In this document: one piece after another, positions 3,999 to 46,797 of the stretch | Layout of the letters: every line of letters starts with the position of its first letter | Position numbering within the stretch: position 1 is the first letter of the stretch | Virus record (IMG/VR): IMGVR_UViG_3300017987_000122 | Location: 1-51,791 of that record | Reading direction: 5' to 3' (one strand) | DNA: 51,791 nucleotides | DNA from: a virus | Position numbers and translations under genes: made by a program | Notes under the pieces: model-generated | Database searches by the model: none | What the model saw: only the letters and a program-made list of their open reading frames with translations | What the model was told of the DNA's origin: nothing

Positions 3999-4001
3999 AT
4001 T

Positions 4002-4262: not shown

Positions 4263-4263
4263 T

Positions 4264-8130: not shown

Positions 8131-8158
8131 GTTTGGCTCCTTTTGTTATGTATGTATG

Positions 8159-9004: not shown

Positions 9005-9026
9005 TTTATTCTCCTTATGTATATGA

Positions 9027-10037: not shown

Positions 10038-10073
10038 TTTATTTCTCCTTTTTTTATTTTAAGATTTTTTCTT

Positions 10074-10292: not shown

Positions 10293-10304
10293 GGCACTCT
10301 CCTA

Positions 10305-11296: not shown

Positions 11297-11298
11297 AT

Positions 11299-12123
11299 CT
11301 ATACATGTATGTTTCTATACCTATCCAGAATAGAAGCTACTTCAGGTAAAAATTCATGTTCAAACTTATTCGCCCTTCTACTTTGGGATCCCCTGGAAGT
11401 AGAAAAGTTTTCATAATCCCCTCTATGATCATTCATGTATCTGATCTCAAGCTCACAAGCTACAGTAAGATCTGTATATTCTTCAGCTATACATCTTACA
11501 TCAGCTGAAGCTATGTCAGCAGTTTGATCAGCTGTTTTAGATCCTGTCTCAGTAGCACTTCCAGCTATCTGTTCTCCTACTTCAAATCTTCCATATAAAA
11601 CTTCTATAACTATGGTAGTAAGAGTTTTACTTATAACATAACCCATAGCTCCTGAAGTTTGCCCTTCAGCAAAAACCCCAGCTACAAAAGCTTCTGATCC
11701 TTCATTCTCAATAGTGAAAGTAGATTGAGTACCTGAAGCGGCTAAGCCGCCAGTATATACTACTTCCAGCCCTCTTTTAGCTGGGATAACTGGAGTTTGT
11801 AAACATATAGATCTTTCCTGAGATCCTATGTATGTATCTGATTCTGTAGTTTCAGATCCAGTAAACTCTCCTGTACTATCAGACTTAACAGAAGTTAAAA
11901 CAGTTATAGGGAAATTCCTTACAGGATATTCTATAGTTTTAGGCAAAGTATCAAAATATTCTGTATGGCTTTTCAGCTCCAGATCCCTGTTAAGGTACTC
12001 TTCTATTTTCCTGGAGATAGCTGGAATCCAGCTTAAAAATTTCCGCTTATTTACAGCATCATCTGTAAGGGGAGTATTCCCCCCTAAAAAATATCTAGCT
12101 CTTCTCCAGCTTGTAAGATTCAT
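11299..12123 (-). CDS. Head-tail connector, gp6/gp7-like adaptor
   Basis: This 274-residue protein starts MNLTSWRRARYFLGG, with an AAAGGAGCTGAG ribosome site. The N-terminal helical portion (FLSWIPAISRKIEEYLNRDLE) and C-terminal ADVRCIAEEYTDLTVACELEIRYM match the fold pattern of gp6-like adaptor proteins that bind under the portal. A beta insertion at about residues 130-205 (GSQERSICLQT ... IAGSATETGS) looks like an inserted domain. The family assignment is moderately secure from motif and position. The insertion makes the protein longer than typical ~100-150-residue adaptors. Confidence 0.65.
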   Translation of the reverse strand: MNLTSWRRARYFLGGNTPLTDDAVNKRKFLSWIPAISRKIEEYLNRDLELKSHTEYFDTLPKTIEYPVRNFPITVLTSVKSDSTGEFTGSETTESDTYIGSQERSICLQTPVIPAKRGLEVVYTGGLAASGTQSTFTIENEGSEAFVAGVFAEGQTSGAMGYVISKTLTTIVIEVLYGRFEVGEQIAGSATETGSKTADQTADIASADVRCIAEEYTDLTVACELEIRYMNDHRGDYENFSTSRGSQSRRANKFEHEFLPEVASILDRYRNIHV

Positions 12124-12144
12124 TTACTCAGCTCCTTTAAGGAA

Positions 12145-12186
12145 GGGAGCAGATACATATAAATTAACCAGGATGTATCTGCTCCC
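12145..12186 (-). other. Intercistronic hairpin, 14-bp perfect stem
   Basis: The arms at 12145-12158 and 12173-12186 are perfectly complementary over 14 bp with a 14-base loop. The hairpin fills the gap between the stop at 12201 and the ribosome site of the connector gene. There is no following T-run, so it is not a standard intrinsic terminator. The arm GGGAGCAGATACAT copies the ribosome-site-plus-start element used at other genes here, so the hairpin could sequester a false ribosome site or protect or process mRNA. Confidence 0.8.
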
Positions 12187-12200
12187 AGGTATGGCAGTTA

Positions 12201-12662
12201 TTAAGGATTCTGATGATCGAAGTCTACAGTATTATCCTGAGTTACAGGCTGATCTTCAGCACCAGCCAGCAATACATTAATGCCAAAAGCTTTAGAGCTG
12301 GCATCAGCATTAGTAACTTTGATAAAACAGTATCTTTTCATATCCCTAGCTCTTACTCTGATGATAAGAGTTTTATCATCATCAGAAGATCCCAGCTGAT
12401 CAAAATCAGCCGCTGTACCAGATCCATCTGTAAAAGCAGTAGCGGCTTCTCCATCATCAGTAGCTGAATCAAAAACAGCTACATCCAATGTACCAGTGAT
12501 AGCTCCCAGGCTAAGCTCTACTAACATCTCATCAAAGCCCTGAGTATCAATACCTGAAGCCGCCGCCGCTGTAGTATTGTTATAAGTGGTAAGAGTAGCT
12601 GTTACAGTTTCTGGCGGCACTACCTGAACCACTTTTACTTCTTCATGTAATCCTTTAATCAT
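12201..12662 (-). CDS. Probable head decoration or minor head protein
   Basis: This 153-residue protein has a CAGGAGAATAAAA ribosome site. The sequence is acidic, Ala/Thr/Asp-rich and beta-like (TVTATLTTYNNTTAAAASGIDTQG, GTLDVAVFDSATDDG, KTLIIRVRARDMKRYCFIKVTNADAS). This resembles small head-associated proteins encoded near the capsid gene in metagenomic siphophages. It could be a decoration protein. No named family can be given from sequence alone. The 8-base overlap with the preceding gene suggests translational coupling. Confidence 0.6.
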   Translation of the reverse strand: MIKGLHEEVKVVQVVPPETVTATLTTYNNTTAAAASGIDTQGFDEMLVELSLGAITGTLDVAVFDSATDDGEAATAFTDGSGTAADFDQLGSSDDDKTLIIRVRARDMKRYCFIKVTNADASSKAFGINVLLAGAEDQPVTQDNTVDFDHQNP

Positions 12663-13026
12663 TTTTATTCTCCTGTTTTTTAGTAATATTTTTTAATTGA
12701 TTGAAAATTGGAGTATGTTTTTCAGGCTCTGCTAAAGTGATCGCAACATCAGGGCTTCCATTATAAGATGGTTTAGAAGAATCTTGTTTCTTCTCTTTTC
12801 CCCTGTTAGCCAGATCATTTAAAGCAGAGATAAGATTATCCTTAGAGATCTCACAGTTAAAGCTTTCTCCTGGTTTACCTTTTGAAATAAGATCAGCTAT
12901 AGCTATTTTAAGCTTAGCCGCACTTTTTTCATTAGGAGATCTAGGGATACTTAAACAAGCTTTCTCTACACTAGAGATAGGAGTTAAAGTATCAGCTTTA
13001 CTTTTTATCTCATGGTTTATTCTCAT
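12655..13026 (-). CDS. Small head-region protein, unknown
   Basis: This 123-residue charged protein starts MRINHEIKSKADTLTPISS. The ATG at 13026 overlaps the upstream stop (ATGA) after AAGGG. There are two apparent parts: a helical N-terminus (SAAKLKIAIADLISKG, DNLISALNDLANRG) and a Lys/Asn-rich end (NQLKNITKKQENKND). No membrane segment or Cys pattern is visible. It lies among capsid-connector genes, so a structural or assembly role is inferred only from position. Confidence 0.65.
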   Translation of the reverse strand: MRINHEIKSKADTLTPISSVEKACLSIPRSPNEKSAAKLKIAIADLISKGKPGESFNCEISKDNLISALNDLANRGKEKKQDSSKPSYNGSPDVAITLAEPEKHTPIFNQLKNITKKQENKND

Positions 13027-13316
13027 CCCTTAGCCTTTTTCTTTACAGCCTTCTTCATAGCTTTCTTAACTTTAGAAAGCTTTGATTCAGGCTTACTTTC
13101 TTTCTTAGCTTCCTTCTTAGGAGCTTCCAGCTTCTCTTCCTTTTTAGGAGTTTCAGCTGGAGCTTCTAAGATGGTAACTTTTTTCTGAGCCTGTAGAGTT
13201 AAAGCCCTAGCATGGGGAACAGTACATACATCCCCCTTATAAAACAGCCCTTGAGCTGTCTGATAGCTAGGTACTTCAACTCTAACCAGAGTATCATTAC
13301 TCATTACTTCTACCAT
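13023..13316 (-). CDS. Small basic head-region protein with Lys-rich tail
   Basis: This 97-residue protein follows the major capsid gene and overlaps its stop. The N-terminal ~50 residues form a compact beta-like domain (VEVPSYQTAQGLFYKGDVCTV). The rest is a Lys/Glu/Ala tail ending KKAMKKAVKKKAKG. The start could be 13316 (overlapping the capsid stop) or an ATG at 13304 just after it; the ribosome signal is weak for both. Its position suggests a head-associated protein, possibly DNA-contacting through the tail, but this is inference. Confidence 0.6.
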   Translation of the reverse strand: MVEVMSNDTLVRVEVPSYQTAQGLFYKGDVCTVPHARALTLQAQKKVTILEAPAETPKKEEKLEAPKKEAKKESKPESKLSKVKKAMKKAVKKKAKG

Positions 13317-14563
13317 TCACTTTCAGTAGTGGCGGCATCAGAAATAATAGAGAAGGCTTCAGGATGTAGTACCAGAGTATCTATATCCAGGAAAACTACC
13401 AGCCAAGTCTGATTACTCTGGAAAGCTGTTCCAGCTACATCAGAAGACTTAATAGCCATGCCGCCCCATAGGCCCATAGCGAACTGTTTCCACTCCCCTA
13501 CTACAGCTTTAGAAAGAGTAGTAGAAGATCCCTTAGCTATGTTCTTAGGAACATTAGTAGTGCTTCTAACCTTCAATCCCAGAGTTTCCTCCAGTACTTT
13601 ATCAGTCATAAGGGGATTAATCAGAGGCATGCCTAATGTATCTCCAGAAAACTGGGCTACTCTTTCTCTCTTCAATCCAGATTTAACTCTGGGATGGCAG
13701 AGTAAGCCGCCCTGATCCTGGATCTTCAGGTAGTTATCATCCTGTACATCAGCGATCATAGAAGCTACCTTATCCACTGTAAGCCTTCCACCATTAGCAC
13801 CTATAGCTGTAGCTGTATTCAGGCCAGTAGCGTTAAGGATTCCCAGAGGCTGAGAAGCTGAGCCAGTACCAGTAAGACCAATCTGATCCACTCCCAGGCT
13901 GATCCCTTCCTGCATAAGCATTCTTACAATAGGCTCAGCGGCACTCTGTTGCTTCAGAAGTTTGTTACTCATCTTCAAAAGCATGTTGCCAGTTTTCGGC
14001 CTGAGCTGTTTAAGCCCAAAAGCGATCTCTTTTTCAGTAGCATTAGCACCATCAGCCGCCCATGTAAGAGTAGGACGATCTTCAGCTTCAGGAATATCTA
14101 CATCATCTGTAAGATTGGGCCACATAGTGATCCCCAGTTCCTGAAGTACTGTCTGGGCCAAAGCTGGCTTAAGGATCTTATCCATAGCAAGCTCTGTAGG
14201 AATAAGATAAGCTCCCTGAGCACCAGTATTAGTATCCTGAGCTTTTTTCCTAGCTTCCTGAAAAATCTTCTGCTCCAGCTCAGCATTAGACCATTCACCA
14301 GTAACAATAGCATGGCAAGCTTTAGCAAAGCTAAAAGGCTCCCCTTTATAAGTCTCTTCATCTGAACCAGGAACAGATACATTAGTAGCTCTAACAGCTT
14401 TAACATACTCTTCCATCTCAGCTTTCATTTCAGCCTTAAGAGCTGTAATTTTGCTATCTGTCATAGATTCATTATCTTCCTTCTGCTTAATCAGATTTTC
14501 CTCATAAGTTTCCAGGAAGGAATCCATTTTTTCTTCCAGAGTCTTTTTGTTATCTTCAGGCAT
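13310..14563 (-). CDS. Major capsid protein, HK97 fold
   Basis: This 417-residue protein follows the prohead protease, as in HK97. The N-terminal ~65 residues are a charged coiled coil (KKTLEEKMDSFLETYEENL), matching a scaffolding delta domain removed by the protease. The rest has the HK97 capsid pattern: ELGITMWPNLTDDVDIPEAEDRPTLTW, then KLMSNKLLKQQSAAEPIVRM, GISLGVDQIGLTGTGSASQPLGI, and a C-terminal VGEWKQFAMGLWGGMAI. The start at 14563 has a CAGGAGAATAAAAA ribosome site. Capsomer assembly would follow maturation cleavage; the cleavage point is probably near residues 65-110 but is not identifiable by eye. Confidence 0.9.
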   Translation of the reverse strand: MPEDNKKTLEEKMDSFLETYEENLIKQKEDNESMTDSKITALKAEMKAEMEEYVKAVRATNVSVPGSDEETYKGEPFSFAKACHAIVTGEWSNAELEQKIFQEARKKAQDTNTGAQGAYLIPTELAMDKILKPALAQTVLQELGITMWPNLTDDVDIPEAEDRPTLTWAADGANATEKEIAFGLKQLRPKTGNMLLKMSNKLLKQQSAAEPIVRMLMQEGISLGVDQIGLTGTGSASQPLGILNATGLNTATAIGANGGRLTVDKVASMIADVQDDNYLKIQDQGGLLCHPRVKSGLKRERVAQFSGDTLGMPLINPLMTDKVLEETLGLKVRSTTNVPKNIAKGSSTTLSKAVVGEWKQFAMGLWGGMAIKSSDVAGTAFQSNQTWLVVFLDIDTLVLHPEAFSIISDAATTESEW

Positions 14564-14583
14564 TTTTTATTCTCCTGTTTTAA

Positions 14584-14618
14584 TTAAGGTTTTAAGTTAA
14601 GGTTTTAAGTTAAGGTTA
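14584..14618. repeat. Short tandem AT-rich repeat between protease and capsid genes
   Basis: The unit AAGGTTTTAAGTT repeats twice with partial copies, in the short gap between the protease stop and the capsid ribosome site. It looks like a slippage-prone spacer. No hairpin or promoter is evident. Confidence 0.6.
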
Positions 14619-15878
14619 TTTTAATAAGGCTTTCATTTTTGCTGAAGCATTATCTAAACATGAGTATAGAGCTTCTGAAGCTTCCCCATCTTGATCGCTC
14701 TTGCTACTCTCTTCTTCAGGAGTAGAAGATGATTTTTCTGGTTCAGGTTCTTTAGGCTCAGCCGCCTGTAAGATACTCTTCAAATCTTTTTGTAAATCTT
14801 TCAGAGAATTTAAAATTCTATTAATAGTGTCTTTATTTTTCTGGGAAAGAACAGAGCCAGCTTTTTCTACTATGTTAGTTACTGCTTCTTTCTCCTGGTA
14901 CATATTTACATTAACTTCATGCCCAGACTGTTTTAGAGATCTTGCTAGTATCAGCTTCTCTCTCATATCTTCTACATTATCCTTTTCAGATACATGTATA
15001 GTAATAGGCAGTTTAATATCACTAATACCTTCAGATTTTTCTTCTGAGTTTTCTTCACCTTCAGGCTTTTCTTCTGCTGGAGTATCCAATGATTTTTTAT
15101 CTGTTTCATTATTTTCTTCTGTAGGATCCTGATCCCCAGCTGGATCATCTCCTTTTTTCAGAAGCTCTATATGTTCATCAGATACTCCAGCTTCTTTAAG
15201 AGTATTCAAAGCTTCTTCTGTATACATACCTTTTCTAGCAGAAATTTGAGTAGCATTAGGATTAGCTGGGATAGTAACTATTGAAAATTCCCTAAGCTCA
15301 ATCTTATCAAAAATTATTCCAAAATCATCCAGCTTAAATTTTGCTTTCTCTTCTGGAGAAGCCAGCCTTACATTTTCAGGTTTAGCTGTAAAACCTATGG
15401 ATCCATTTTTCAAAGCTCCAGCCTTTACCATTCTGAAAGTAGATTCAGCCATACCTGTTCTATCGATCTCATCATCAAAAAATAAAACCTTGCCCACTAC
15501 ATCATTAGCTTCTTTATCGTAAACAGTTTCTATAGATTTTCCTATGGGGAAGCTATGAGCATCATGCTGTAAAAGAATGATCGGATCTTTTTTATAAGAT
15601 TTTAAATTTACTCCTGAAGGAATGATTACTTCATTATGCCGATCTGCTGTAGCATCTGTAAACCTAAACTGTACTACTCGCTCTTCCATACCTTCCTGGA
15701 AGGTAAGCCCGATCTTATTACAGAGCTTCTTACATTCAGCCGCTGAAATTTTAACAGCTGAAGAAGCCTTCAGCTCCAGGCTCATACTTTTTTGATCTTT
15801 TAAAGAATCTACTACATCCTTTAAAGCGGCTTTAGCTTTTGCGGCTGTATCTCCCAGATCAGATAATGTTTTAGGCAT
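14616..15878 (-). CDS. HK97-type prohead serine protease
   Basis: This 420-residue protein has an AAAAGGAGATTG ribosome site. The protease domain covers about residues 60-220: VVQFRFTDATADRHNEVI, then the catalytic His region ILLQHDAHSFPIGKS, and the catalytic Ser region GALKNGSIGFTAKP, followed by FDKIELREFSIVTIPANPNA. These are hallmarks of the HK97/S78-type prohead proteases. The C-terminal ~200 residues are an acidic, coiled-coil extension (Glu/Ser-rich, then ILNSLKDLQKDLKSILQAAE) that may act as a scaffold. The gene lies between the portal-MuF gene cluster and the capsid gene as expected. Confidence 0.9.
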   Translation of the reverse strand: MPKTLSDLGDTAAKAKAALKDVVDSLKDQKSMSLELKASSAVKISAAECKKLCNKIGLTFQEGMEERVVQFRFTDATADRHNEVIIPSGVNLKSYKKDPIILLQHDAHSFPIGKSIETVYDKEANDVVGKVLFFDDEIDRTGMAESTFRMVKAGALKNGSIGFTAKPENVRLASPEEKAKFKLDDFGIIFDKIELREFSIVTIPANPNATQISARKGMYTEEALNTLKEAGVSDEHIELLKKGDDPAGDQDPTEENNETDKKSLDTPAEEKPEGEENSEEKSEGISDIKLPITIHVSEKDNVEDMREKLILARSLKQSGHEVNVNMYQEKEAVTNIVEKAGSVLSQKNKDTINRILNSLKDLQKDLKSILQAAEPKEPEPEKSSSTPEEESSKSDQDGEASEALYSCLDNASAKMKALLK

Positions 15879-15892
15879 GTTACAATCTCCTT

Positions 15893-16048
15893 TTATTTAG
15901 TATTAAAATAGAATCCTCTAAGCTGATGGGGAACTATTCTTTCACCAGTATCTGGATGTTTAAGCTCTTCCATTACATCTTTTTTAGTTTTAACAGCTGG
16001 CTTCTTAGCCGCTCTTTTCTTTACTGCTTTTTTCTTTCTTATCTTCAT
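15893..16048 (-). CDS. 51-residue basic protein between portal and protease
   Basis: The ATG at 16048 follows a CAGGAGAAGCC ribosome site and the frame ends with TAA at 15895-15893. The N-terminus is Lys/Arg/Ala-rich (MKIRKKKAVKKRAAKKPAVK), followed by KKDVMEELKHPDTGERIVPH. It is histone-tail-like at the start and may bind nucleic acid or the acidic protease scaffold. No family is recognised. It was found by translating the gap; the ribosome site and exact packing with neighbours support it. Confidence 0.7.
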   Translation of the reverse strand: MKIRKKKAVKKRAAKKPAVKTKKDVMEELKHPDTGERIVPHQLRGFYFNTK

Positions 16049-16064
16049 GCTGGCTTCTCCTGGT

Positions 16065-16223
16065 TTAGTACTCTGTTATTTTATTTGGTTCAGATTTAGC
16101 TCCTATATGTATAGATTCATCAGCTATAATTCTCTGGCTTCTATGTATGCCTGAAATCTTCCTTTTAATATTAGCCCAGCTGAAAGCTGTATTATCTTTT
16201 TTCTTTTCTTCTTCTTTACTCAT
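16065..16223 (-). CDS. 52-residue hypothetical protein overlapping portal stop
   Basis: The ATG at 16223 overlaps the portal-MuF TGA as ATGA, and the frame closes with TAA at 16067-16065. The sequence starts MSKEEEKKKDNTAFSWANI, is charged at the N-terminus, and ends GAKSEPNKITEY. There is no transmembrane or Cys pattern. Tight coupling to the portal gene is the main evidence. Function is unknown. Confidence 0.65.
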   Translation of the reverse strand: MSKEEEKKKDNTAFSWANIKRKISGIHRSQRIIADESIHIGAKSEPNKITEY

Positions 16224-18367
16224 TTTACTGCCTCTGTAGTACATCTACAGTTTATAACTTCTGATGGAGCACCATTAGAATCTAATGGCTGAATAAGCCC
16301 AGTAACAGGAAAAGGATCACCTACTTTAACTCCAGGCCCATCTCCTTCTAAAGCATGTGTATGCCTTACCTTTTCATCGGCGGCTGTTACCCATCTCCAT
16401 TTTTCAATCTTCTCAGCTTTAAAAATCTTTCCTTTAGTGGCCTGAGCTACAGCTGATGTTTCTGTTCTAGCTATAGTCATAGAATTTTTAATTCTGAAGT
16501 TATAGAAATCTTTTGTAGTGTTTTTAATTTCTTTAGCTAACTGCTGAGTAGTTAAATTTTGTCTTAACCCAGTTTCAATAGTACCAGTAAGTTTATTACC
16601 CAGAGTTTTAAAGTTAGTAGTATTCACTCCTTTTAAAAATTCTATTCTCTCTTTCCTTATAGCTGATGTTACTTTAGGGCTGGGCTTATAATTTAAAAGC
16701 TGGCCTAAATCTTTTTCAGCTTGAAGAGTTTGTAAGCCTATAGTTTCATCATATATGGGAGCCGCCATCTCCATAAGAATTTTATCTTCATTCAGTTTAC
16801 CAGATATGAAAGCTGAAATTCTTACACCTTCAGGCTGAGCTTTTGATTTATTAGCGGCCCAGCTATCTACCCTATCCAGTATTTTATTTCTCTGCCTGAT
16901 AAGGTACTTTTTAAACTCTTCATTAAATTTTTTCTCAGGCTTCTTCAGTACATTAGTAACATGATCTAACCATGTAGTAGAAGCTTTTTCTTCCAGGAGC
17001 TTTACAGCTTCAGGCTCACTTGAAAGATATTTCATGTAAGCTTTCTCAGCTTCAGAATTTCCCTGGTTTACAGCTCCTATAACTTCCCCAGTATTCAAGT
17101 TTACTCTGGGCTTAACTACTAAGGGCTGGCTTAACCAGGGATACATGTTAAGATTATTTACTGGAAGATTAACAGTCCTGTAAGCTTCATCAGCTGGTAA
17201 GCCCTGCTCTATTAAAAGTTTTGCATCCTTAATTTTTTGGCTTACATCTTTTTTCAGCGGCTGTACATTAGAAAGATCAAACTGGCCTACTATATTTTTA
17301 TTTCCTAAATGCCTTATAAACTGGTTATTCAATCCTAACCAAAGTTTATCTATCAGAGGCATTAATGTATCTTCCCAAAAAATTTCTTTCTCTACTTTTG
17401 CTGTAGCTCTGTTTACTGTATCCGTTAAACCCAGTACAGTTTTAGGTACTCCATATACAGCCAGAATTGTATCTCTATTCATTTGTCTCTGATCTGTAAA
17501 TTGAAGCTCTTGTAAATTTTTAGCAGTCTGTTCAAACTTTAAGCCACTATGTAAGAAAGCTGTCTTACCAGCTTTAGACCAGCCTTCATACTGATCAGCC
17601 CACATATTTTTTATGCCTTCAGCCTGATTAGTAGTAAGCTTACTATCTGTTTTCAGTATGCCGCCTACATTAGCTGAGTTATCCATAAACTTATCTGAAA
17701 GCTCTGAAGCCTTAGCATCAGCTGTAGCTGTAATAGCTATGGAGCTGTAAGGGCTTAAACCCAGGAGCCAGTTATAAGGATTAAATAATCTAACCCTGAT
17801 TAACTGATCTGGATAAAAAATAAGCTCTTCCCCTGAAGGATGTTTATACTTCCATCTTACTGATGTTTGCTCTGCTTTATCTCCCTTAACAGGTTCTATA
17901 CTTTCATCTGAAAAAGGAAAAAGATAAGAAGGAAGCTTACCACTTATAAGGCTCATCTGCTCCCCGTTTTTATCCAGGGGAAGAATAAAACATTGACCAC
18001 CAGGGGAAACTGTAGTAGGAAGCATAAGGTTTAATAAAACAGCTTCAAAAAATTCAGAGCCATTCATTAAATTATTAGGATTTCTAAACAGAGCGATTAA
18101 CTCATTATCCCTACTAAACTCTTCTGGATTATTTTTATTACCCACTATTACAGGTAGGCGGCTAATGTTATTAACTATGGCAGATACAGCGGCATATACC
18201 CAGGGATGTTTAGCATAAGGTTGTCTAGTTATAGCAGATACATTACCAGAGCTTCCCCCAAATAACGTCCACCAGCTTTTCATAAAATTAGGATCAAGAT
18301 CAGGTACAGATTTTGTATCTATCTCTTGCCCTGTATGATCAAAAAGTACTACATCTTTTTTCGGCAT
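16220..18367 (-). CDS. Portal protein fused to MuF-type minor head domain
   Basis: This is a 715-residue protein. I place the start at 18367 (MPKKDVVLF) because a GAAGGATATTTT ribosome site precedes it; the upstream ATG at 18424 lacks one. Residues ~25-430 are portal-like: QPYAKHPWVYAAVSAIVNNISRL, NPYNWLLGLSPYSSIAI, and MNRDTILAVYGVPKTVLGLTD. Residues ~560-715 carry a Phage_Mu_F pattern: MTIARTETSAVAQATKGK, EKWRWVTAADEKVRHTHALEG and the terminal EVINCRCTTEAV. In many phages portal and MuF are separate genes, so this is a fusion. It would form the vertex ring and deliver the MuF domain in the head. Confidence 0.9.
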   Translation of the reverse strand: MPKKDVVLFDHTGQEIDTKSVPDLDPNFMKSWWTLFGGSSGNVSAITRQPYAKHPWVYAAVSAIVNNISRLPVIVGNKNNPEEFSRDNELIALFRNPNNLMNGSEFFEAVLLNLMLPTTVSPGGQCFILPLDKNGEQMSLISGKLPSYLFPFSDESIEPVKGDKAEQTSVRWKYKHPSGEELIFYPDQLIRVRLFNPYNWLLGLSPYSSIAITATADAKASELSDKFMDNSANVGGILKTDSKLTTNQAEGIKNMWADQYEGWSKAGKTAFLHSGLKFEQTAKNLQELQFTDQRQMNRDTILAVYGVPKTVLGLTDTVNRATAKVEKEIFWEDTLMPLIDKLWLGLNNQFIRHLGNKNIVGQFDLSNVQPLKKDVSQKIKDAKLLIEQGLPADEAYRTVNLPVNNLNMYPWLSQPLVVKPRVNLNTGEVIGAVNQGNSEAEKAYMKYLSSEPEAVKLLEEKASTTWLDHVTNVLKKPEKKFNEEFKKYLIRQRNKILDRVDSWAANKSKAQPEGVRISAFISGKLNEDKILMEMAAPIYDETIGLQTLQAEKDLGQLLNYKPSPKVTSAIRKERIEFLKGVNTTNFKTLGNKLTGTIETGLRQNLTTQQLAKEIKNTTKDFYNFRIKNSMTIARTETSAVAQATKGKIFKAEKIEKWRWVTAADEKVRHTHALEGDGPGVKVGDPFPVTGLIQPLDSNGAPSEVINCRCTTEAVK

Positions 18368-18391
18368 AAAATATCCTTCAAAACCACTATA

Positions 18392-18420
18392 TATATTAAT
18401 AGCATATGTTCTATAATGAA
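18392..18420 (-). promoter_or_regulatory. Possible promoter upstream of portal gene
   Basis: The 94-base gap between TerL and portal is AT-rich. Reading leftward it contains TTGCTT, about 17 bases, then TATTAA, a fair sigma-70-like match. No terminator is visible. It may boost head-gene expression, but the AT content makes a chance match plausible. Confidence 0.3.
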
Positions 18421-18461
18421 GCAAGTTATAAGTTTATTTTTATTTTTAAGATCCGTATACA

Positions 18462-19898
18462 TCAGAAGATCTCAAAGCTAGGTAAGGGAGAAATAATATC
18501 ATAGATTTGCCCCCATACTCCATACTTAAAACTATCTCCTGTATCTGGAGATCTTCTAAGCTTCTCTTTCATTTTATCTTTGCTCCATAGTCTTATACTT
18601 TTCTCTCCCTGGATCTCATAACCTTGAGCCGCTATATCATTCATCAAAGCTTCATCAGTTATATTACCTATCATCTGTTCTTCAAAAAGGATCTTAACAT
18701 TCCATCCGATCTGAGCATTGAAGTTATAAAACTTAAAGCCAGTTTCTACAGCCTGTTCTATCTGCTTAGAGCCGCCTACTATTTCCTGTACAAAGTACCC
18801 ATCATTAACCAGGAAATCATATACACCTCCACCTATGCCTACTACATCTATCCATACCCTATCATGAGGAATATTAAATTTATGTATCAGCCTTTTAGTC
18901 TCATCAAAAACTTCTCGCTGATCTGTCTTAGAAGCTCTTACTATCTTCCTTACATTACAGCCTAAAGCATGAGTACCTTTTAATACAGTCCATACAGTTT
19001 CATCTTTACCATGCCTTCCTACATCCACTCCCAGGCTGTAATGTATATCTTCTTCTGGTACACCTTCAAAGCTTATAGGCTCTTTAGACTTTAGTATATA
19101 TTCCCAGCTTACTAACTGCTCTGAAGTATCTTCAGCTTCCCAGGAGCCTTCTACCAGCCGCCTATACAATACTGGAGATCTCTTTTTAATTTCCTGAAGA
19201 TTCTTAATGTATTCAGGGGGATGATGGGGATTATCTTCTACCAGAGATTTTACAAAGTAGTAAGGAGCTTTCAGCTCTCCCTTACTCCAGGGAGTATAGA
19301 ATACATCCTTAAGAAAGCCCTGATGAGGGTTACAGGTAAGAAGGATTAAAGGTAAAGGCATGGGATCTAATCTCCACCTTCCAGATCTTTCTATACATTT
19401 TAGGTAGGTTAGATAGTTTAGCTCATTAGCTTCTTCCAGAAGGAAACCATTTACTTCAAACCCATCAAACCTAGTAAGCTCTGGATCTTCATCAAAGCTT
19501 TCAGAAACAAACTCAATTCTAGATCCATTCTCAGCTACAGCTATGAGATCTGTTTTATTAAATCTCTCTGGAGTAAAGAATGGCATAGGGCATGTTTTCC
19601 AGAAGGAAGGAACAGTATTCCTTTTCAAAGTAGGGCGATCTTTTCTAATTACTACCCATCTGGATCCAGGGAATACTTTACAGAGCATGTATAGAGCCAG
19701 AAGAGATCCTACAGTTTTTCCTCCACCTACTCCCCCTCCAAATAAAAGCCTAGTGTATTTACCAGAGAGCAGAGCCTGTATAAAATCAGTTTGTCTATCT
19801 GTAGTTTCTACTACTATCCTGGATACATCATCTAAGCCAGCAGTATCTACATTAGTGATCCTGGAGTTATGAGAAAAGGAAGGTTTAGGAAGTGGCAT
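18462..19898 (-). CDS. Terminase large subunit (packaging ATPase-nuclease)
   Basis: This 478-residue protein has Walker A LLFGGGVGGGKTVGSL at about residues 50-65, Walker B FLLEEANEL near 150, and a coupling motif LLTCNPHQG near 190. The nuclease domain starts at about residue 290 with YSLGVDVGRHGKDETVWTV and continues with VWIDVVGIGGGVYDFL, giving the acidic metal-binding residues of the RNase H-like fold. It cuts and translocates DNA into the prohead through the portal. The gene follows TerS and overlaps a 48-residue zinc ribbon gene by 14 bases, with a weak ribosome site, so it is probably translated by coupling. Confidence 0.95.
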   Translation of the reverse strand: MPLPKPSFSHNSRITNVDTAGLDDVSRIVVETTDRQTDFIQALLSGKYTRLLFGGGVGGGKTVGSLLALYMLCKVFPGSRWVVIRKDRPTLKRNTVPSFWKTCPMPFFTPERFNKTDLIAVAENGSRIEFVSESFDEDPELTRFDGFEVNGFLLEEANELNYLTYLKCIERSGRWRLDPMPLPLILLTCNPHQGFLKDVFYTPWSKGELKAPYYFVKSLVEDNPHHPPEYIKNLQEIKKRSPVLYRRLVEGSWEAEDTSEQLVSWEYILKSKEPISFEGVPEEDIHYSLGVDVGRHGKDETVWTVLKGTHALGCNVRKIVRASKTDQREVFDETKRLIHKFNIPHDRVWIDVVGIGGGVYDFLVNDGYFVQEIVGGSKQIEQAVETGFKFYNFNAQIGWNVKILFEEQMIGNITDEALMNDIAAQGYEIQGEKSIRLWSKDKMKEKLRRSPDTGDSFKYGVWGQIYDIISPLPSFEIF

Positions 19899-20031: not shown

Positions 20032-20234
20032 GCATGTACCTCTAAAGGGAGTAATTCAATCTTAAGGATCTTTCTGTTATGAGTTTTGAATTTATAGAGA
20101 AGCTTTTTAAATAAACATTCAAGTGAATCAGCATCTATTACATCTTTATGTAACTCAGCTGTCATTACATTAATTGAAGTAATCCTGTACTCATGGATCC
20201 TATCAAAATTTGATTTAGGAATTTTTGGAGCCAT
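20028..20234 (-). CDS. 68-residue hypothetical protein between TerS and TerL
   Basis: I place the start at the ATG at 20234, which overlaps the TerS stop as TGATG; a TTG one codon earlier is less likely. The sequence (MAPKIPKSNFDRIHEYRITSIN ... LECLFKKLLYKFKTHNRKILKIELLPLEV) is compact with alternating strands and helices and no Cys cluster. It resembles small RNA- or DNA-interacting domains in general shape only. Function is unknown; being between the two terminase genes suggests a packaging link. Confidence 0.65.
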   Translation of the reverse strand: MAPKIPKSNFDRIHEYRITSINVMTAELHKDVIDADSLECLFKKLLYKFKTHNRKILKIELLPLEVHA

Positions 20235-20740
20235 CAAAATTCTATTACCTGATCCCCTATCTTCAGGATCTGTTTTTTCTTTCCTTCTTTATCTTCAGAG
20301 CTTATAGTAATCTCTCTTCCATACTGTTCTCTATATGCTCTCTCTAAAAACCATGCTGAAGCTTTCCAGTTTCTAGCTCCCTGATGTATCCGCTGTAAAT
20401 GGATAAGCTTTGGAGTAAGCTTAGCTGTTCTAACTCTCTGGCCTAAACCATCTATATTCTGGCCTACCATGTTACTGAAATAATCATAAGCTACTCCTAC
20501 CCTATCACATGCTTCTCTAACTGAAAAATCAATCTGGATAAGGTTAAGCACCTTCTGTACAATTTCTGAAGGAAGAGCTTTATAGCTGGTTATAGCTGTA
20601 CTCTTAGGATGTTCAGGAGAAGTAACAGAAATAGAGTTAAACTCTCCTGGATCTTTTTTGGTAACTGGAATCAAAGCCTTAGACTTTTTCCGCTTAAAGA
20701 TCTTCTTCTTACTTTTATTTTTTCTGGGTTTAATCTTCAT
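20234..20740 (-). CDS. Terminase small subunit-like protein
   Basis: This is a 168-residue protein starting MKIKPRKNKSKKK at 20740. Longer starts to 20791 need a GTG inside another small gene. After a ~25-residue basic tail, residues ~55-130 hold a helix-turn-helix region (LPSEIVQKVLNLIQIDFSVREACDRVGVAYDYFSNMV), then a helical segment LTPKLIHLQRIHQGARNWKASAWFLERAYREQYGR. That second pattern (ARNWKASAWFLER..) is typical of TerS-like proteins. It would recognise the packaging site. Location right before TerL supports this. The repeat array at 21.76-21.99 kb is a candidate recognition region but could equally belong to the ParB-like protein. Confidence 0.8.
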   Translation of the reverse strand: MKIKPRKNKSKKKIFKRKKSKALIPVTKKDPGEFNSISVTSPEHPKSTAITSYKALPSEIVQKVLNLIQIDFSVREACDRVGVAYDYFSNMVGQNIDGLGQRVRTAKLTPKLIHLQRIHQGARNWKASAWFLERAYREQYGREITISSEDKEGKKKQILKIGDQVIEF

Positions 20741-20858
20741 CAGATAGATCCGCTTTACTGATTTCATGTTCAGAAACTCTGAAAAAAGCACAAGTAAGAA
20801 ACCCCAGCATAAAGCCAGCTGATAACATCATAAAACCGAAAAGGATCATAGTAAACAT
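20730..20858 (-). CDS. 42-residue single-pass membrane protein
   Basis: The ATG at 20858 follows the ParB-like TAG directly (TAGATG) with AGAGGATTAG as ribosome site. The TAA lies at 20732-20730, overlapping the TerS start by 11 bases. Residues 1-26 are hydrophobic (MFTMILFGFMMLSAGFMLGF), followed by RVSEHEISKADLSDED. Short single-span proteins of this type occur near packaging or lysis genes; a holin-like role is possible but unproven. Confidence 0.7.
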   Translation of the reverse strand: MFTMILFGFMMLSAGFMLGFLTCAFFRVSEHEISKADLSDED

Positions 20859-21590
20859 CTAATCCTCTTCTTCCAGGATCTCTTCAGATACATCTTCTGG
20901 AGTTTGATCATCATCAGAAGCTTTAGAAATTTTGCCGCCAGCCCGATCTTCTGGAAGGACAATATTTTCCATGAGGAAATTTATAACAGCATTATCCCCT
21001 TTATCTTTATGATGGGAAGTATTAAGCATCTCTTTCAGCTGGTCTATACATAACCTGAATTTTTTATGGGTAGGAGAAGTAAGCATAAATTTAAAAGTTT
21101 TCAGGTTAGAAGATTCTTCTTCAGGATCTACATCATCTTCTTCCTGGTTTGCATGGTTCAGATTATCTAAGAGAGTTTGTAGATCTTTCTCATCAAAGGG
21201 CATAGTTTTTGATAAATCCTCTATGGAAGTATTCAGTACTTCATCATTAAGAATCTCTTGTATACATAGAGCCAGCTGATCCTGGTTTGTATCAAATCTG
21301 GTTTCATTGGTTTCTATTGCTATCCTCTGGGCCTGAGCTAAGCCTATAGAACCTAGATCATAAGCCACTATAGAAGGGATATTTAATTGCTGGAGAGCTG
21401 TTAGCCGATGATTACCATTGACTACTTCATAGAAGCCAGTAGGAAGAAGCCGCACTATGATATTTTCTATTTGCCCATTCCTTTTAATATTTTCCTTTAA
21501 TTTGGCTGTTAATTGATCGTTATTGTCTTTATAATTCCAATCGGCTTTAACCAGTTTCTTTAACTGGATTTCCTTAAAATTTTTTAACAT
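20859..21590 (-). CDS. ParB/sulfiredoxin-like protein upstream of terminase
   Basis: This 243-residue protein has an N-terminal ParB-nuclease-like domain: IQLKKLVKADWNYK, LKENIKRNGQIENIIVR, then the GFYEVVNGNHRLTALQQLNIPSIVAYD core (GNHR box). ParB N-domains bind nucleotide and contact DNA or partner proteins. The middle is helical and the C-terminus acidic (PEDVSEEILEEED). There is no clear central HTH as in chromosomal ParB. A dense repeat array starts about 170 bases upstream, so it may bind there. Phage ParB-like proteins near terminase are common. An AAAGGAGCCGCCCA ribosome site precedes the start at 21590. Confidence 0.8.
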   Translation of the reverse strand: MLKNFKEIQLKKLVKADWNYKDNNDQLTAKLKENIKRNGQIENIIVRLLPTGFYEVVNGNHRLTALQQLNIPSIVAYDLGSIGLAQAQRIAIETNETRFDTNQDQLALCIQEILNDEVLNTSIEDLSKTMPFDEKDLQTLLDNLNHANQEEDDVDPEEESSNLKTFKFMLTSPTHKKFRLCIDQLKEMLNTSHHKDKGDNAVINFLMENIVLPEDRAGGKISKASDDDQTPEDVSEEILEEED

Positions 21591-21618
21591 TGGGCGGCTC
21601 CTTTTTAGATGGTAATGG

Positions 21619-21744
21619 TTAACAGTTTATAATACTTTTCTTAGGAAGTGAAAACGGAAAAAATTTCTGCGTTAGTGTAGCTTTAACAGAAAAAAAGTCT
21701 TCGAGAAAGAGATCCCTTAAATTTTTATTCAATTCAATTTCCAT
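21619..21744 (-). CDS. Possible 41-residue peptide at head of late operon
   Basis: The frame runs from ATG at 21744 (after AGAGGATAGATGA) to TAA at 21621-21619. The sequence is MEIELNKNLRDLFLEDFF and onward, ending KKSIINC. It is the first possible gene after the repeat array and promoter. The coding DNA has more CpG than its neighbours. It could be a leader peptide or chance frame. Confidence 0.35.
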   Translation of the reverse strand: MEIELNKNLRDLFLEDFFSVKATLTQKFFPFSLPKKSIINC

Positions 21745-21759
21745 TCATCTATCCTCTGA

Positions 21760-21990
21760 TCTATACATACATATCATATACATATGTATAGATTATGTAT
21801 GTATGTATACCCTATGTATAGATCCGATGCATACATAATCGTTTATTATGCGGCATGATGCATACATAATGCATACATGATCCATACATATGTATATGAT
21901 GCATACATGATGCATACATATGTATAGCTGATGTATACATTAGGGCATGCATACATGATCTATACATCTTCGATACATATGTATAGATCG
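21760..21990. repeat. Iteron and palindrome array (centromere-, operator- or pac-like)
   Basis: About 230 bases carry two interleaved motif families. Six copies contain GCATACAT, mostly as GATGCATACAT, at 21826-21840, 21857-21867, 21868-21881, 21898-21910, 21909-21920 and 21945-21960. Four copies of the palindrome ATACATATGTATA lie near 21778, 21885, 21915 and 21973. The array lies between the presumed late promoter and the ParB-like gene, in DNA without a gene. It could be a ParB-binding site, the TerS packaging site, or a replication origin. Repeats are direct, short and unspaced, so this is not a CRISPR. Confidence 0.85.
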
Positions 21991-22037
21991 GCCTCTGGTT
22001 TTAAGAAAAGTGTTATGTATACATCGGCTTCGGTACT

Positions 22038-22066
22038 AACATAAACCTTATTCCCCATCTAGTCAA
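22038..22066 (-). promoter_or_regulatory. Sigma-70-like promoter for the ParB-terminase-head operon
   Basis: Reading leftward, TTGACT (22066-22061) is followed by a 17-base spacer and TATGTT (22043-22038). This is the best -35 match in the window. Transcription would enter the repeat array and then the packaging operon. Confidence 0.55.
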
Positions 22067-22080
22067 GTTATAATATATTT

Positions 22081-22334
22081 ATTTTAATCCATTGAAAGAT
22101 TTAATCCCCCCACTATACATATACTAAACAGATTCAATACAACTAAACCAAACCCATACCCAGCTCATACTAAAACTGTTTAGCACATATATAAAGATAA
22201 GTAAGAAAGTTATAATATTTTTCTCTCTACTTATTTATACTAAACAGATTTATAATTATTTTATTTAAGTAATAGTATTTATAAGATATATATTATATAT
22301 ATATATAATAAACATATATACATAAGCCGAACAG
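22081..22334 (-). promoter_or_regulatory. Control region A (shared blocks with region B)
   Basis: An AT-rich, gene-free region. Block C is ATTTTAATCCATT at 22081-22093. Block B is CTGTTTAGCACATATATAA at 22176-22194. Block A, 22291-22334, is a TATATA-rich segment ending GCCGAACAG. All three recur in the same order at 46514-46706, block B and C identically. Extra TACTAAACAG copies sit near 22123 and 22238. TTATAATATT elements suggest -10 boxes for leftward transcription. Role as shared operator/promoter or replication origin is inferred. Confidence 0.75.
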
Positions 22335-22337
22335 ATC

Positions 22338-22366
22338 CAAACAAACAAACAAACAAACAAACAAAA
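22338..22366. repeat. CAAA tetranucleotide tandem repeat
   Basis: About six to seven consecutive ACAA/CAAA units follow the terminator-like hairpin (in transcription order). On the transcribed strand this reads TTTG-repeats after a short T-run, so it may extend the terminator's U-rich tail. Copy number may vary by slippage. Confidence 0.8.
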
Positions 22367-22370
22367 AGAA

Positions 22371-22417
22371 AGCCGCCTAATACAGTAGGAGCAGTACTAC
22401 TGTATCATATGGCGGCT
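22371..22417 (-). terminator. Intrinsic terminator of the accessory operon
   Basis: The outer stem AGCCGCC (22371-22377) pairs with GGCGGCT (22411-22417); the inner stem ATACAGTAG pairs with CTACTGTAT. On the minus strand a TTTCTTTTTG tract follows directly. It lies ~75 bases after the stop of the sialyltransferase-like gene and would insulate control region A. Confidence 0.75.
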
Positions 22418-22432
22418 CTCCCCATCTCTGAA

Positions 22433-22473
22433 GGTAGTAGCTCTGGAGCAGAGCAGAGTTAGAGCTATCTACC
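22433..22473 (-). ncRNA. Second hairpin before terminator; possible structured RNA 3' end
   Basis: GGTAG-TAGCTCT pairs with AGAGCTA-TCTACC with a one-base bulge, loop of ~16 bases rich in GAGCAG. Together with the terminator hairpin it makes a ~100-base structured 3' UTR. A stable small RNA derived from the operon end is possible but is inference. Confidence 0.45.
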
Positions 22474-22490
22474 AGTACAGGGATGTAATA

Positions 22491-23057
22491 TCATCCTATC
22501 GGCCTTACCTTACCTTCCTTAATAAGTTTCTTTAAATACTTACCATCCTTATTCAAATCATGGCATACAGCTCTATTCTCTTGCTTACCTTCCCAGTTAG
22601 TACCATCCAAACTAAACCCAGCTATATCTATTACTTCTCTCCCTCCTCTTCTATACATCTGCATCTGAAGAGCTACATGTATAGTTACTATCCCAGAAGT
22701 GGGGAAGGTATGGAATCCGTTAACACCTACTAAGCCGCTGATCTCTGCTATGTATTTAGTATCTATCTTATCTATCATGTATCCATAAGCTTTACCTTCA
22801 GCGTACAGCCGCTTATAAGAATGGTATGGGAAGATCCCCCATATTATACACTCTCTGGGAAGGCTTTCTAAAGGTTTCTTATCTCTCCATGTAGGGCATC
22901 CCAGAGCTAATATATCGATCTTCTTACCTACAGCTTCAGCTCTCTCTGGTCTATATCCATTAACTCTTATCACAGTATCATAGCTATCTATAAGCTCAGC
23001 CCTTGCCCTATCCCTGGAAAGTGGAGCATTACCTACTACTATACATCTATTCATCAT
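22491..23057 (-). CDS. GT29 sialyltransferase-like glycosyltransferase
   Basis: This is a 188-residue protein. The N-terminus CIVVGNAPLSRDRARAELI, followed by DSYDTVIRVNGYRP, matches the large sialyl motif (VVGNxPS ... I..YD.VIRVN). Later FPTSGIVTIHVALQM fits the small sialyl motif (T-S/T-G). The end has an HDLNKDGKYLKKL segment. This fold binds CMP-activated sugars. The protein is shorter than cellular GT29 enzymes (~300) and has no signal or membrane anchor, so it would act in the host cytoplasm. The start is 23057 or 23054, overlapping the DUF1937-like stop. Donor and acceptor cannot be told from sequence. Confidence 0.75.
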   Translation of the reverse strand: MMNRCIVVGNAPLSRDRARAELIDSYDTVIRVNGYRPERAEAVGKKIDILALGCPTWRDKKPLESLPRECIIWGIFPYHSYKRLYAEGKAYGYMIDKIDTKYIAEISGLVGVNGFHTFPTSGIVTIHVALQMQMYRRGGREVIDIAGFSLDGTNWEGKQENRAVCHDLNKDGKYLKKLIKEGKVRPIG

Positions 23058-26201: not shown

Positions 26202-26450
26202 TTAATTGAATAAATCTTCATCTGTACTATCTCTTTCAATGCCTTCTCTAAGGTTATTGAGAAGCATATGAAACATACAGCCCAGAGTAGTTATATCTTT
26301 TTCATTCTCTGCTTTAATCTTAAGGCTAAATTTAAACTCAGGTATGCTGATTTCTATAACTGGTGTAAGCTTCTGATCCTGGTAATGAGTAGATAGGGCT
26401 TTAATCAGATCCAGGTTTTCTTCCAGGCTCTCAGGGTTAATGATTTCCAT
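26202..26450 (-). CDS. 82-residue hypothetical protein
   Basis: The start is 26450 (MEIINPESL) because a GGAGGAGAGAG ribosome site precedes it and the ATG overlaps the methyltransferase stop as TAATG. The sequence has an N-terminal helix (LEENLDLIKALSTHY), a strand region (LTPVIEISIPEFKFSLKI) and an acidic end (IERDSTDEDLFN). Co-translated with the methyltransferase; function unknown. Confidence 0.65.
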   Translation of the reverse strand: MEIINPESLEENLDLIKALSTHYQDQKLTPVIEISIPEFKFSLKIKAENEKDITTLGCMFHMLLNNLREGIERDSTDEDLFN

Positions 26451-26983
26451 TAGTACTCTCTCCTCCATATACATACTATACTGGGAAAAGGAGCACTATT
26501 TTTAGAGCCTCCAAACTTTAAGCGGCCTTTAATAAAACGGATCTCAGCCTTCCCATATATGTATCTATGAAACCATTTAGTATCTGTTCTAGCTGGTAAC
26601 AGAGCTACTATAGCTCCACCATGATCCAGTTTACGGCTCTCATAGTAACATTTAACTACCCAATTAATGATCCCTGGTACATACTCTTCTATACAGAATC
26701 CTCTTTTCTTACAGATTTTCTTTTTACATACTGGCTTACATGGATGTTCAGGATCTCCATAAGGGGGATTAACAAAAACCTTCTGTATGTATGGGCTGAT
26801 CCAGGGCTTACTTAATCCATCTATTCCTAAATCATTACAGAAGCCCATAGGAGCCTTCTGGTTAGCTCTAGTACAACATGGATCCAGGTTAAAACCAAAC
26901 TCCTGATCCAGCTTATCATAAAATTCTATAGGAGTAGCCCACTCTCCAGAAGCTGAACTAAATAAGCTTTTATTCATGCTCAT
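26450..26983 (-). CDS. dam: Phage N6-adenine DNA methyltransferase (Dam-type, PF05869-like)
   Basis: This is a 177-residue protein. GEWATPIEFYDKLDQEFGFNLDPCC, then KVFVNPPYGDPE, GGAIVALLPARTDTKWFHRYIYG, and RLKFGGSKNSAPFPSIVCIWR form the phage DNA N-6-adenine methyltransferase signature: the NPPY catalytic motif, the DPCC-type SAM region, and ARTDTxWF. A Cys-rich insertion (HPCKPVCKKKICKKRGFC) after NPPYG could bind zinc. The target is not shown by the sequence; GATC is very frequent here. The start at 26983 follows GGGAGCAGATAC. Likely protects phage DNA from restriction. The symbol is used for the family. Confidence 0.85.
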   Translation of the reverse strand: MSMNKSLFSSASGEWATPIEFYDKLDQEFGFNLDPCCTRANQKAPMGFCNDLGIDGLSKPWISPYIQKVFVNPPYGDPEHPCKPVCKKKICKKRGFCIEEYVPGIINWVVKCYYESRKLDHGGAIVALLPARTDTKWFHRYIYGKAEIRFIKGRLKFGGSKNSAPFPSIVCIWRREY

Positions 26984-30056: not shown

Positions 30057-30284
30057 TTATGATCTATGAGCTTCTGCTTCTGTATCTTCTACCTTTTCCC
30101 AAAGACTGTAAATCCCATCACCAGCCGCTGAGCTTAATAAATCTCTTACTGTTCTGGTAACTTTGGATCCTTTGTATTCTGCCTTTAAAAAATCCTGGAG
30201 CCTAGAAACTTCTTTCCTGGTAAGTCTCACCTCAATTTTAAAAGTGGCTCTTTCTATTCCATCTTTTGAGTTAGTATACTTCAT
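30057..30284 (-). CDS. 75-residue hypothetical protein, possible RHH-like
   Basis: The region RATFKIEVRLTRKEVSRLQDFLKAEYKGSKVTRTVRDLLSSAAG has a strand followed by two helices, similar to ribbon-helix-helix DNA-binding proteins. The ribosome site CAGGAGCAGAAC is good. It could be a regulator. The assignment is weak. Confidence 0.6.
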   Translation of the reverse strand: MKYTNSKDGIERATFKIEVRLTRKEVSRLQDFLKAEYKGSKVTRTVRDLLSSAAGDGIYSLWEKVEDTEAEAHRS

Positions 30285-31355: not shown

Positions 31356-32231
31356 CTATTTCTCTTCTGCTTTGATACCCTGGATGTAATCAGCCGCCTT
31401 TTGTGCTCTCTGAGCGGCTGTAACTAGCTGGCCTGTTTTTTCAGCGGCTAACTTCTTACACCAGCTGGCAAGGTAGGCGGCTGAGTTTTTGAAAGTCTTT
31501 TCAATCCCAGCTTTTCCACATAAGAAAGCCGCTGTAAATTCTGCTGTAAGCTCTTCCTTAGAGTAATCATCTGAGCCAAAAAAGTTAGCTTCTACTACTT
31601 CCTTCCTGTTCAGTCTGTTCTTATGTCCAGTACTATGGGCCATTTCATGATACAGAGTAGAATAGTATTCTTCTGAGCTTTTGAATGTTTCTTTCTTAGG
31701 CATGTTAATGTAATCAGAAGTAGGAGAGTAGTAAGCTCTCTGCTCTGCATGTTTCACTTCAGGAGAATCTTTAAAAAGCTTAGCCAGCTTCTCAGCTCTC
31801 TGAATGGGAGTAAACTTAGGAGCTTCTTCAGTAGGCTTTTCCCATGTAAGAGTAGTCTGGGCAAGATTATAAACCTGATAGAACCTAGCAAAAGGGATCT
31901 TCTTTTCTTCACCAGTTTTATTACCAGCTTCATCCTTCTCTTCTATCTTAATCCACTTCCAGAAAACTACAGGAAGATAGCTCTGCTTACCATCCAGCTT
32001 TCCACCTTTGGCCTTCAGCTGTTTCATAGTAATGAAGTAAGGGCATCCATAAATTGAAGCCGCTATGCCTGTAGTAAGGGCATTGATTCCCCTGTACAGC
32101 TTGCCACTAACAAAATTTTTAGTACCGTCAAAGCTTTGATCTTCCCAGGGCTTTACCCAGTTATCAGCTCCAGCTTCTATCAGCTTAATCAGGTTCTCTT
32201 CTACTACTTTGTATACTTTTTCATTTGCCAT
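31356..32231 (-). CDS. ArdC-like antirestriction protein (ssDNA-binding plus zincin)
   Basis: This is a 291-residue protein. The N-terminal ~130 residues (VYKVVEENLIKLIEAGADNWVKPW, SGKLYRGINALTTGIAASIYGCPYFITMKQLKAKGGKLD, PVVFWKWIKIEE) match the ArdC N-terminal ssDNA-binding domain. The C-terminal domain has the zincin motif LYHEMAHSTGHKNRLNR with third ligand in YSKEELTAEFTAAFLCGKAG. ArdC of plasmid pSa blocks type I restriction and shields incoming ssDNA. Length is like the family (~300). The CAGGAGCAGAAA ribosome site is good. Catalytic HExxH is intact. Confidence 0.85.
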   Translation of the reverse strand: MANEKVYKVVEENLIKLIEAGADNWVKPWEDQSFDGTKNFVSGKLYRGINALTTGIAASIYGCPYFITMKQLKAKGGKLDGKQSYLPVVFWKWIKIEEKDEAGNKTGEEKKIPFARFYQVYNLAQTTLTWEKPTEEAPKFTPIQRAEKLAKLFKDSPEVKHAEQRAYYSPTSDYINMPKKETFKSSEEYYSTLYHEMAHSTGHKNRLNRKEVVEANFFGSDDYSKEELTAEFTAAFLCGKAGIEKTFKNSAAYLASWCKKLAAEKTGQLVTAAQRAQKAADYIQGIKAEEK

Positions 32232-32373: not shown

Positions 32374-32400
32374 TTTATAATAATTTTCTTATATCGGCAA
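32374..32400 (-). promoter_or_regulatory. Promoter module, copy 3
   Basis: TTGCCG (32400-32395), 15-base spacer, TATAAA (32379-32374). It drives the ArdC-like gene. The 32401-32510 upstream DNA has A/T-tracts and a GAGCAGATTT-CCAC-TTTTAGAGC block also seen near copy 4 (35.84 kb). Confidence 0.6.
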
Positions 32401-32558: not shown

Positions 32559-32623
32559 CCTGGCTTCTTCATTTGATTTTGCATTCAATTGAATGGAGCT
32601 TCAACTATGTATGTATGTATAGA

Positions 32624-35773: not shown

Positions 35774-35800
35774 TTTATAATACTTCTCTTAGATTGACAA
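35774..35800 (-). promoter_or_regulatory. Promoter module, copy 4
   Basis: TTGTCA (35800-35795), 15-base spacer, TATAAA (35779-35774), then TTAGAGGTATAGG. It is the best -35 of the four copies. It starts transcription of the lysis/accessory cluster, just past the primase-helicase gene. Confidence 0.65.
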
Positions 35801-46450: not shown

Positions 46451-46513
46451 GTTTAAAATTTACCATTTTAAAAGGGAAAAACAAAAGAAATTAATGAAAA
46501 TAAAACAGCTATC

Positions 46514-46794: not shown

Positions 46795-46797
46795 TTT

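What the first reader, a model, noticed from the sequence alone, without database searches (positions are those of the whole stretch)
21760..21990. Iteron plus palindrome array upstream of a ParB-like gene
Six GCATACAT iterons and four ATACATATGTATA palindromes are packed into ~230 bases between a good promoter and a ParB-like/TerS/TerL operon. This may be a phage centromere-like site, a packaging (pac) site read by TerS, or an origin. Density and order differ from any coding region. A chance origin is implausible.
Basis: partly seen in the sequence, partly recalled or inferred. Interest (0 to 1): 0.72.

Follow-up and report, generated by a model that had tools for sequence, protein, structure and literature searches.

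The report
Phage repeat array upstream of terminase
A previously undescribed tailed phage carries 24 copies of the 6-letter DNA word ATACAT, mostly one helix turn apart, in the gap before its DNA-packaging genes; it is a real protein-docking site, most likely where packaging of the phage DNA starts or is switched on, but which protein binds it is not yet known.

Summary
The gap 21591-22490 is the largest stretch without an ORF of 60 aa or more. In 262 bp of it (21763-22024) lie 24 ATACAT/ATGTAT hexamers; the next densest 270-bp stretch has 4 and composition-matched shuffles reach at most 10. The six GCATACAT and four ATACATATGTATA are the visible part of a finer design: four 34-bp blocks, each of four half-sites, sharing the core ATACAT-N5-ATACATATGTAT. 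The array sits at the early-to-late junction, upstream of ParB-like, TerS, TerL and portal genes. An AT-rich, CTAAACAG-bearing element beside it also occurs at the early promoter; the ATACAT array does not.

Best reading: a nucleoprotein site at the terminase operon, most likely the packaging-initiation (pac) site doubling as late-operon control (0.38). Rivals: operator of a dimeric regulator; replication origin. For: position, terminase class, one-turn spacing. Against: dyad symmetry, a ParB-like gene between array and terS, no array in relatives keeping the ParB-TerS pair. Across IMG/VR, similar arrays are only mildly enriched upstream of terminase (12 groups against 7.1 expected, P = 0.012). 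No binding data. New member of a known kind.

The parts
21763..22024 (.). ATACAT/ATGTAT array, 24 hexamers
21767..21800 (.). Block A: four half-sites (+ + - -), spacings 11, 6, 11
   Evidence: core ATACAT-N5-ATACATATGTAT
21862..21895 (.). Block B: four half-sites (+ + + -), spacings 11, 11, 6
21903..21936 (.). Block C: four half-sites (+ + - -)
21951..21984 (.). Block D: four half-sites (+ + + -)
21626..21643 (-). Candidate late promoter motif TAAGAAAAGTATTATAAA between array and ParB-like gene
   Evidence: same motif without mismatch at 32374-32391 and 35774-35791, each upstream of a gene; 18 matches with up to 3 mismatches against 3.4 expected
20859..21590 (-). ParB-like gene (243 aa, ParB N domain; C-terminal domain resembles ribbon-helix-helix by eye only)
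20234..20791 (-). TerS (185 aa, HTH at about residues 75-110)
18462..19898 (-). TerL (478 aa, Terminase_3)
22100..22335 (.). AT-rich element (13-15% GC at 22200-22349) with CTAAACAG boxes; shared with the early intergenic region 46451-46797
22372..22416 (-). Hairpin with T-run on the - strand, likely terminator of the early operon (seen by eye)
32607..32620 (.). Satellite site: three overlapping ATGTAT just after the stop of the endolysin-like gene; shares CTCTGATCTATACATACATA with the array edge

Best explanation
The array is a cis-acting assembly site for a phage DNA-binding protein at the early-to-late junction. Most likely it is the packaging-initiation (pac) site of this phage: TerS binds the repeats, the DNA bends along the ring of HTH domains, TerL is recruited and makes the first cut nearby, and the same complex covers the late promoter region and tunes expression of the ParB-like-TerS-TerL operon. 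Shown: the array, its spacing, its uniqueness in the window, its place, the gene identities. Inferred: that TerS is the binder, that cutting happens nearby, that it affects the promoter.
For: The array is the only one of its kind in the window and lies directly upstream of the ParB-like-TerS-TerL-portal operon. TerL is PF04466, the family annotated as Terminase_3 in Flavobacterium phage 11b. TerS has an HTH and its best PDB fold matches are Sf6 TerS (probability 0.92, E 0.08). [quoted passage not shown] neighbouring HTHs in TerS rings are about one turn of B-DNA apart, and TerS on pac lowers transcription of the operon (PMC4737164; PMC6316719). The commonest spacing here is 11 bp. In other phages, non-coding arrays of ATACAT at 11-bp spacing lie within 2.5 kb upstream of TerL in 12 of 23 independent groups against 7.1 expected from the non-coding DNA of the same contigs (P = 0.012; 7 against 3.5, P = 0.035 on contigs of 10 kb or more).
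Against: Ten of 24 half-sites are inverted and every block holds a perfect 12-bp palindrome, which suits a two-fold dimer better than a ring with all HTHs in one sense. The ParB-like gene separates array and terS. The isolated SF6 TerS DNA-binding domain shows little sequence preference for its pac repeats (PMC4737164). ParB-TerS relatives and five reference phages with related TerL have no such array upstream of terminase. The cross-phage enrichment is small and motif-selected; a scrambled hexamer also fell near TerL, mostly downstream (8 of 21). A satellite site lies 10.6 kb away.
Confidence: 0.38

Rival explanations
1. Operator array for a dimeric phage regulator (ribbon-helix-helix or HTH) that switches the late operon on or off; cooperative binding to 11-bp-spaced half-sites covers the junction.
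For: Dyad blocks of four half-sites. A promoter motif lies between array and first gene, and a small copy of the site lies upstream of a second promoter of the same type at 32.4 kb. In L131 the same core overlaps the start of a small gene that looks like a ribbon-helix-helix protein, just upstream of TerL.
Against: A third promoter of the same type (35.8 kb) has no ATACAT site, and the 32.6-kb site is 215 bp and a hairpin away from its promoter. The ribbon-helix-helix calls are weak: L131 RHH_1 E = 0.15; the window candidate 30057-30284 has no family hit and a low-confidence model without fold matches. 24 half-sites is many for a plain operator.
Confidence: 0.29
2. Replication origin: iterons next to an AT-rich unwinding element.
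For: 22200-22349 is 13-15% GC and adjoins the array. SPP1 oriL and oriR are direct repeats plus an AT-rich element (PMC6316719).
Against: The AT-rich/CTAAACAG element also occurs at the early promoter region, without ATACAT iterons. No iteron-binding initiator was recognised in the replication genes. GC skew does not change sign in a lasting way at the array.
Confidence: 0.15
3. parS-like or centromere-like cluster bound by one of the two ParB-like proteins.
For: Four 12-bp palindromes; the second ParB-like protein (43282-44100) has a ParB HTH domain (PF17762 E 8e-11) and aligns with Spo0J/ParB structures.
Against: No ParA-type partner, integrase or repressor found among the proteins scanned; most half-sites are not in palindromes; relatives of the adjacent ParB-like gene have no array.
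Confidence: 0.1

Closest known systems
SPP1/SF6 pac site (TerS gp1)
   Same: Repeats in the promoter region of the terminase operon; HTH TerS; headful-type TerL family
   Different: SPP1 pac overlaps terS itself and its repeats are few; here 24 regular hexamers with palindromes lie 1 kb upstream of terS behind a ParB-like gene
Phage P1 pac (PacA hexanucleotide repeats, Dam-controlled; from memory, not tested)
   Same: Cluster of hexamers; this phage also encodes a Dam methylase and the array holds five GATC
   Different: Different hexamer; GATC excess in the array is marginal (5 against 1.8, P = 0.037)
SPP1 oriL/oriR iteron origins
   Same: Direct repeats beside an AT-rich element
   Different: No gp38-like initiator recognised; AT-rich element occurs without the array elsewhere in the genome
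ParR/parC and Arc-type ribbon-helix-helix sites (from memory, not tested)
   Same: 11-bp half-site spacing, dyads, cooperative arrays upstream of the binder's operon
   Different: No proven ribbon-helix-helix binder and no ParM here

Membership tests
pac site of a headful phage | Lies at or near terS in a phage with a headful-type terminase | tested here: met
   Array 1.0 kb upstream of terS; TerL PF04466, TerS HTH; headful packaging itself not shown
pac site of a headful phage | Bound by TerS and cut by TerL to start packaging | not testable with these tools
   Needs binding assay and virion-end mapping
pac site of a headful phage | Present in related phages that keep TerS and TerL | tested here: inconclusive
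   Distant relatives lack it; the only near-identical contig (L128) ends at the portal gene
Iteron replication origin | Direct repeats next to an AT-rich unwinding element | tested here: met
Iteron replication origin | Cognate initiator gene nearby | tested here: not met
   Neighbouring genes are ParB-like, TerS and an early gene with a weak GT29 hit; no initiator found in scanned replication genes
ParABS or ParMRC centromere | Cognate motor (ParA, ParM or TubZ) gene | tested here: not met
   None among proteins scanned; small ORFs not all scanned
Ribbon-helix-helix operator | Ribbon-helix-helix binder encoded by the phage | tested here: inconclusive
   Candidate 30057-30284 and the ParB-like C-terminus look right by eye; no profile or fold support

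The most novel reading that the evidence does not exclude
The array is a sequence-specific, helix-phased pac site: a TerS ring reads one hexamer per turn, unlike SF6 TerS, whose DNA-binding domain shows little sequence preference, and comparable 11-bp arrays mark terminase operons in other phages.
Probability: 0.13. Interest if true: 0.7.

Novelty: new member of a known kind. Interest (0 to 1): 0.38.

Why it matters
How TerS rings pick out phage DNA is described as poorly defined (PMC4737164). A compact array of identical half-sites at helical spacing upstream of a terminase operon would make sequence-specific recognition directly testable. If it is an operator instead, it shows how this phage switches from early to late genes.

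Tried and rejected
Close relatives of the window: TerL in viral contigs and in genome contigs gave none; portal gave one near-identical contig that ends before the array. The 24-base core pattern in genome contigs gave nothing. A simple count of arrays upstream of TerL looked striking (17 of 28 against 3 of 21 for a scrambled hexamer), but against the non-coding DNA of the same contigs it falls to 12 of 23 groups against 7.1 expected, so I do not lean on it. TAACAT was a poor control because it is itself a repeated element in some phages. L131's ribbon-helix-helix-like protein has no relatives in IMG/VR by this method and does not align with the window candidate. Structure models were weak (pLDDT 58 and 59). 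Low-complexity expansion was rejected: spacer bases differ between units while spacing holds. The P1 literature search found no usable text.

Full report
OBSERVATION. The window is a 51,791-bp virus record. Nearly all genes run on the - strand: replication genes at 35-46 kb, smaller genes down to 22.5 kb, then ParB-like (20859-21590), TerS (20234-20791), TerL (18462-19898), portal (16220-18424), capsid and tail genes. The gap 21591-22490 has no ORF of 60 aa or more. In it, 24 ATACAT/ATGTAT hexamers lie between 21763 and 22024; the next densest 270-bp stretch has 4. No hexamer exceeds 10 in 300 first-order Markov resamplings of the same 451 bp.

ANATOMY. Nine same-strand neighbours are exactly 11 bp apart, four inverted pairs abut to form ATACATATGTAT, and five pairs overlap by two bases (4-bp offset: three tandem, two divergent). 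Outside the array there is no 11-bp pair and no abutting pair; only 4-bp overlaps occur. Four blocks stand out, each 34 bp with four half-sites: A 21767-21800 and C 21903-21936 (+ + - -), B 21862-21895 and D 21951-21984 (+ + + -). All share ATACAT-N5-ATACATATGTAT. In IMG/VR this 18-base core occurs in only seven other contigs, about five distinct phages. Block grouping was noticed after the fact and was not tested statistically.

SURROUNDINGS. Read in the direction of transcription (- strand) the gap holds: a hairpin with a T-run (22416-22372, by eye), an AT-rich element with CTAAACAG boxes (about 22335-22100), the array, and a promoter-like motif at 21643-21626. The CTAAACAG/AT-rich element recurs in the intergenic region 46451-46797 upstream of the early genes (19 bp identical, 41 bp at 88%), where ATACAT clusters are absent. 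The motif TAAGARAANTATTATAAA occurs without mismatch at 21626, 32374 and 35774, all - strand and upstream of genes; with up to 3 mismatches there are 18 matches against 3.4 expected. A satellite ATACAT site with a 20-bp identity to the array edge lies at 32.6 kb, 215 bp upstream of the 32.4-kb promoter and behind a hairpin; the 35.8-kb promoter has none.

PROTEINS. TerS has an HTH; its model is weak overall (pLDDT 59) but its core is good (82-90 at residues 71-120) and its best PDB matches are Sf6 TerS. The adjacent ParB-like protein has a ParB N domain. Its C-terminal 50 residues look like a ribbon-helix-helix domain by eye, but neither Pfam nor a PDB profile search supports this. The second ParB-like protein (43282-44100) has a ParB HTH domain and aligns with Spo0J. 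A 75-aa protein (30057-30284) is predicted beta-alpha-alpha-beta at low confidence, with no fold match.

RELATIVES. Twenty-five loci with ParB relatives were fetched; in most of them ParB overlaps or abuts an upstream gene, and none has an ATACAT array. Five of thirteen tested keep a TerS relative next to it (25-33% identical). Five reference phages with related TerL have no repeat array upstream of terminase. So neither ParB-like gene nor TerL type predicts the array. The contig L128/L129 is identical over window 1-18436, extends 2,559 bp beyond the window's left end, and stops before the array.

CROSS-PHAGE TEST. A scan for three ATACAT at 11-bp spacing gave 98 stretches in IMG/VR. Many non-coding ones lie upstream of TerS/TerL, including L030 and L131, which share the palindromic core. 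With one member per group and non-coding positions of the same contigs as null, 12 of 23 groups lie within 2.5 kb upstream of TerL against 7.1 expected, P = 0.012 (7 against 3.5, P = 0.035 for contigs of at least 10 kb). Grouping of related phages was by eye. The signal is real but small: intergenic DNA is itself concentrated there. Other ATACAT arrays lie elsewhere, for example L034 far from any terminase match, L055 and L060 before ParA-like genes, and several inside coding genes.

INTERPRETATION. In SPP1, pac overlaps the promoters and start of terS and contains direct repeats; HTHs of TerS rings are about one helical turn apart; TerS on pac also lowers transcription of the operon (PMC4737164; PMC6316719). 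The array fits this in place, class of terminase and spacing. It fits less well in symmetry: palindromes suggest a dimeric binder. The same paper found little specificity of the SF6 domain for its repeats, so a TerS reading 24 hexamers would be unusual. An operator for a dimeric regulator is nearly as likely. An origin is disfavoured because the AT-rich element goes with the early promoter region rather than with the array. A partition centromere is disfavoured because no motor protein was found.

VERDICT. Real, non-random and functional-looking; function not settled; pac with late control leads at 0.38. New member of the known kind 'repeat array bound by a phage protein'.

Noticed in passing
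22100-22335 and 46451-46797: Shared AT-rich element with CTAAACAG boxes in inverted pairs; candidate early promoter operator or paired origins.
   Followed up: partly
21626-21643, 32374-32391, 35774-35791: Recurrent promoter-like motif TAAGARAANTATTATAAA; the 32.4-kb and 35.8-kb copies look like parts of a longer duplicated leader.
   Followed up: partly
whole window; 26450-26983: GATC is 2.4 times commoner than expected (388 against 165) and the phage encodes a Dam-type methylase (PF05869).
   Followed up: partly
43282-44100: Second ParB-like protein with HTH, related to Spo0J, in the replication module, with relatives in Klebsiella and Stenotrophomonas phages.
   Followed up: partly
22491-23057: 188-aa protein with a GT29 sialyltransferase hit above the Pfam cut-off (PF00777, E 9e-7).
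   Followed up: no
31356-32231: ArdC-like antirestriction protein (PF08401 and PF18818).
   Followed up: no
L131:8502-8870: ATACAT array overlapping the start of a small ribbon-helix-helix-like gene directly upstream of TerL in an unrelated phage.
   Followed up: partly
L145, L146, L152, L167, L174: TAACAT arrays at 11-bp spacing lie close downstream of TerL in several phages (8 of 21).
   Followed up: no
L129:1-2559: A near-identical contig extends the genome at least 2.5 kb beyond the window's left end and does not join its right end.
   Followed up: yes
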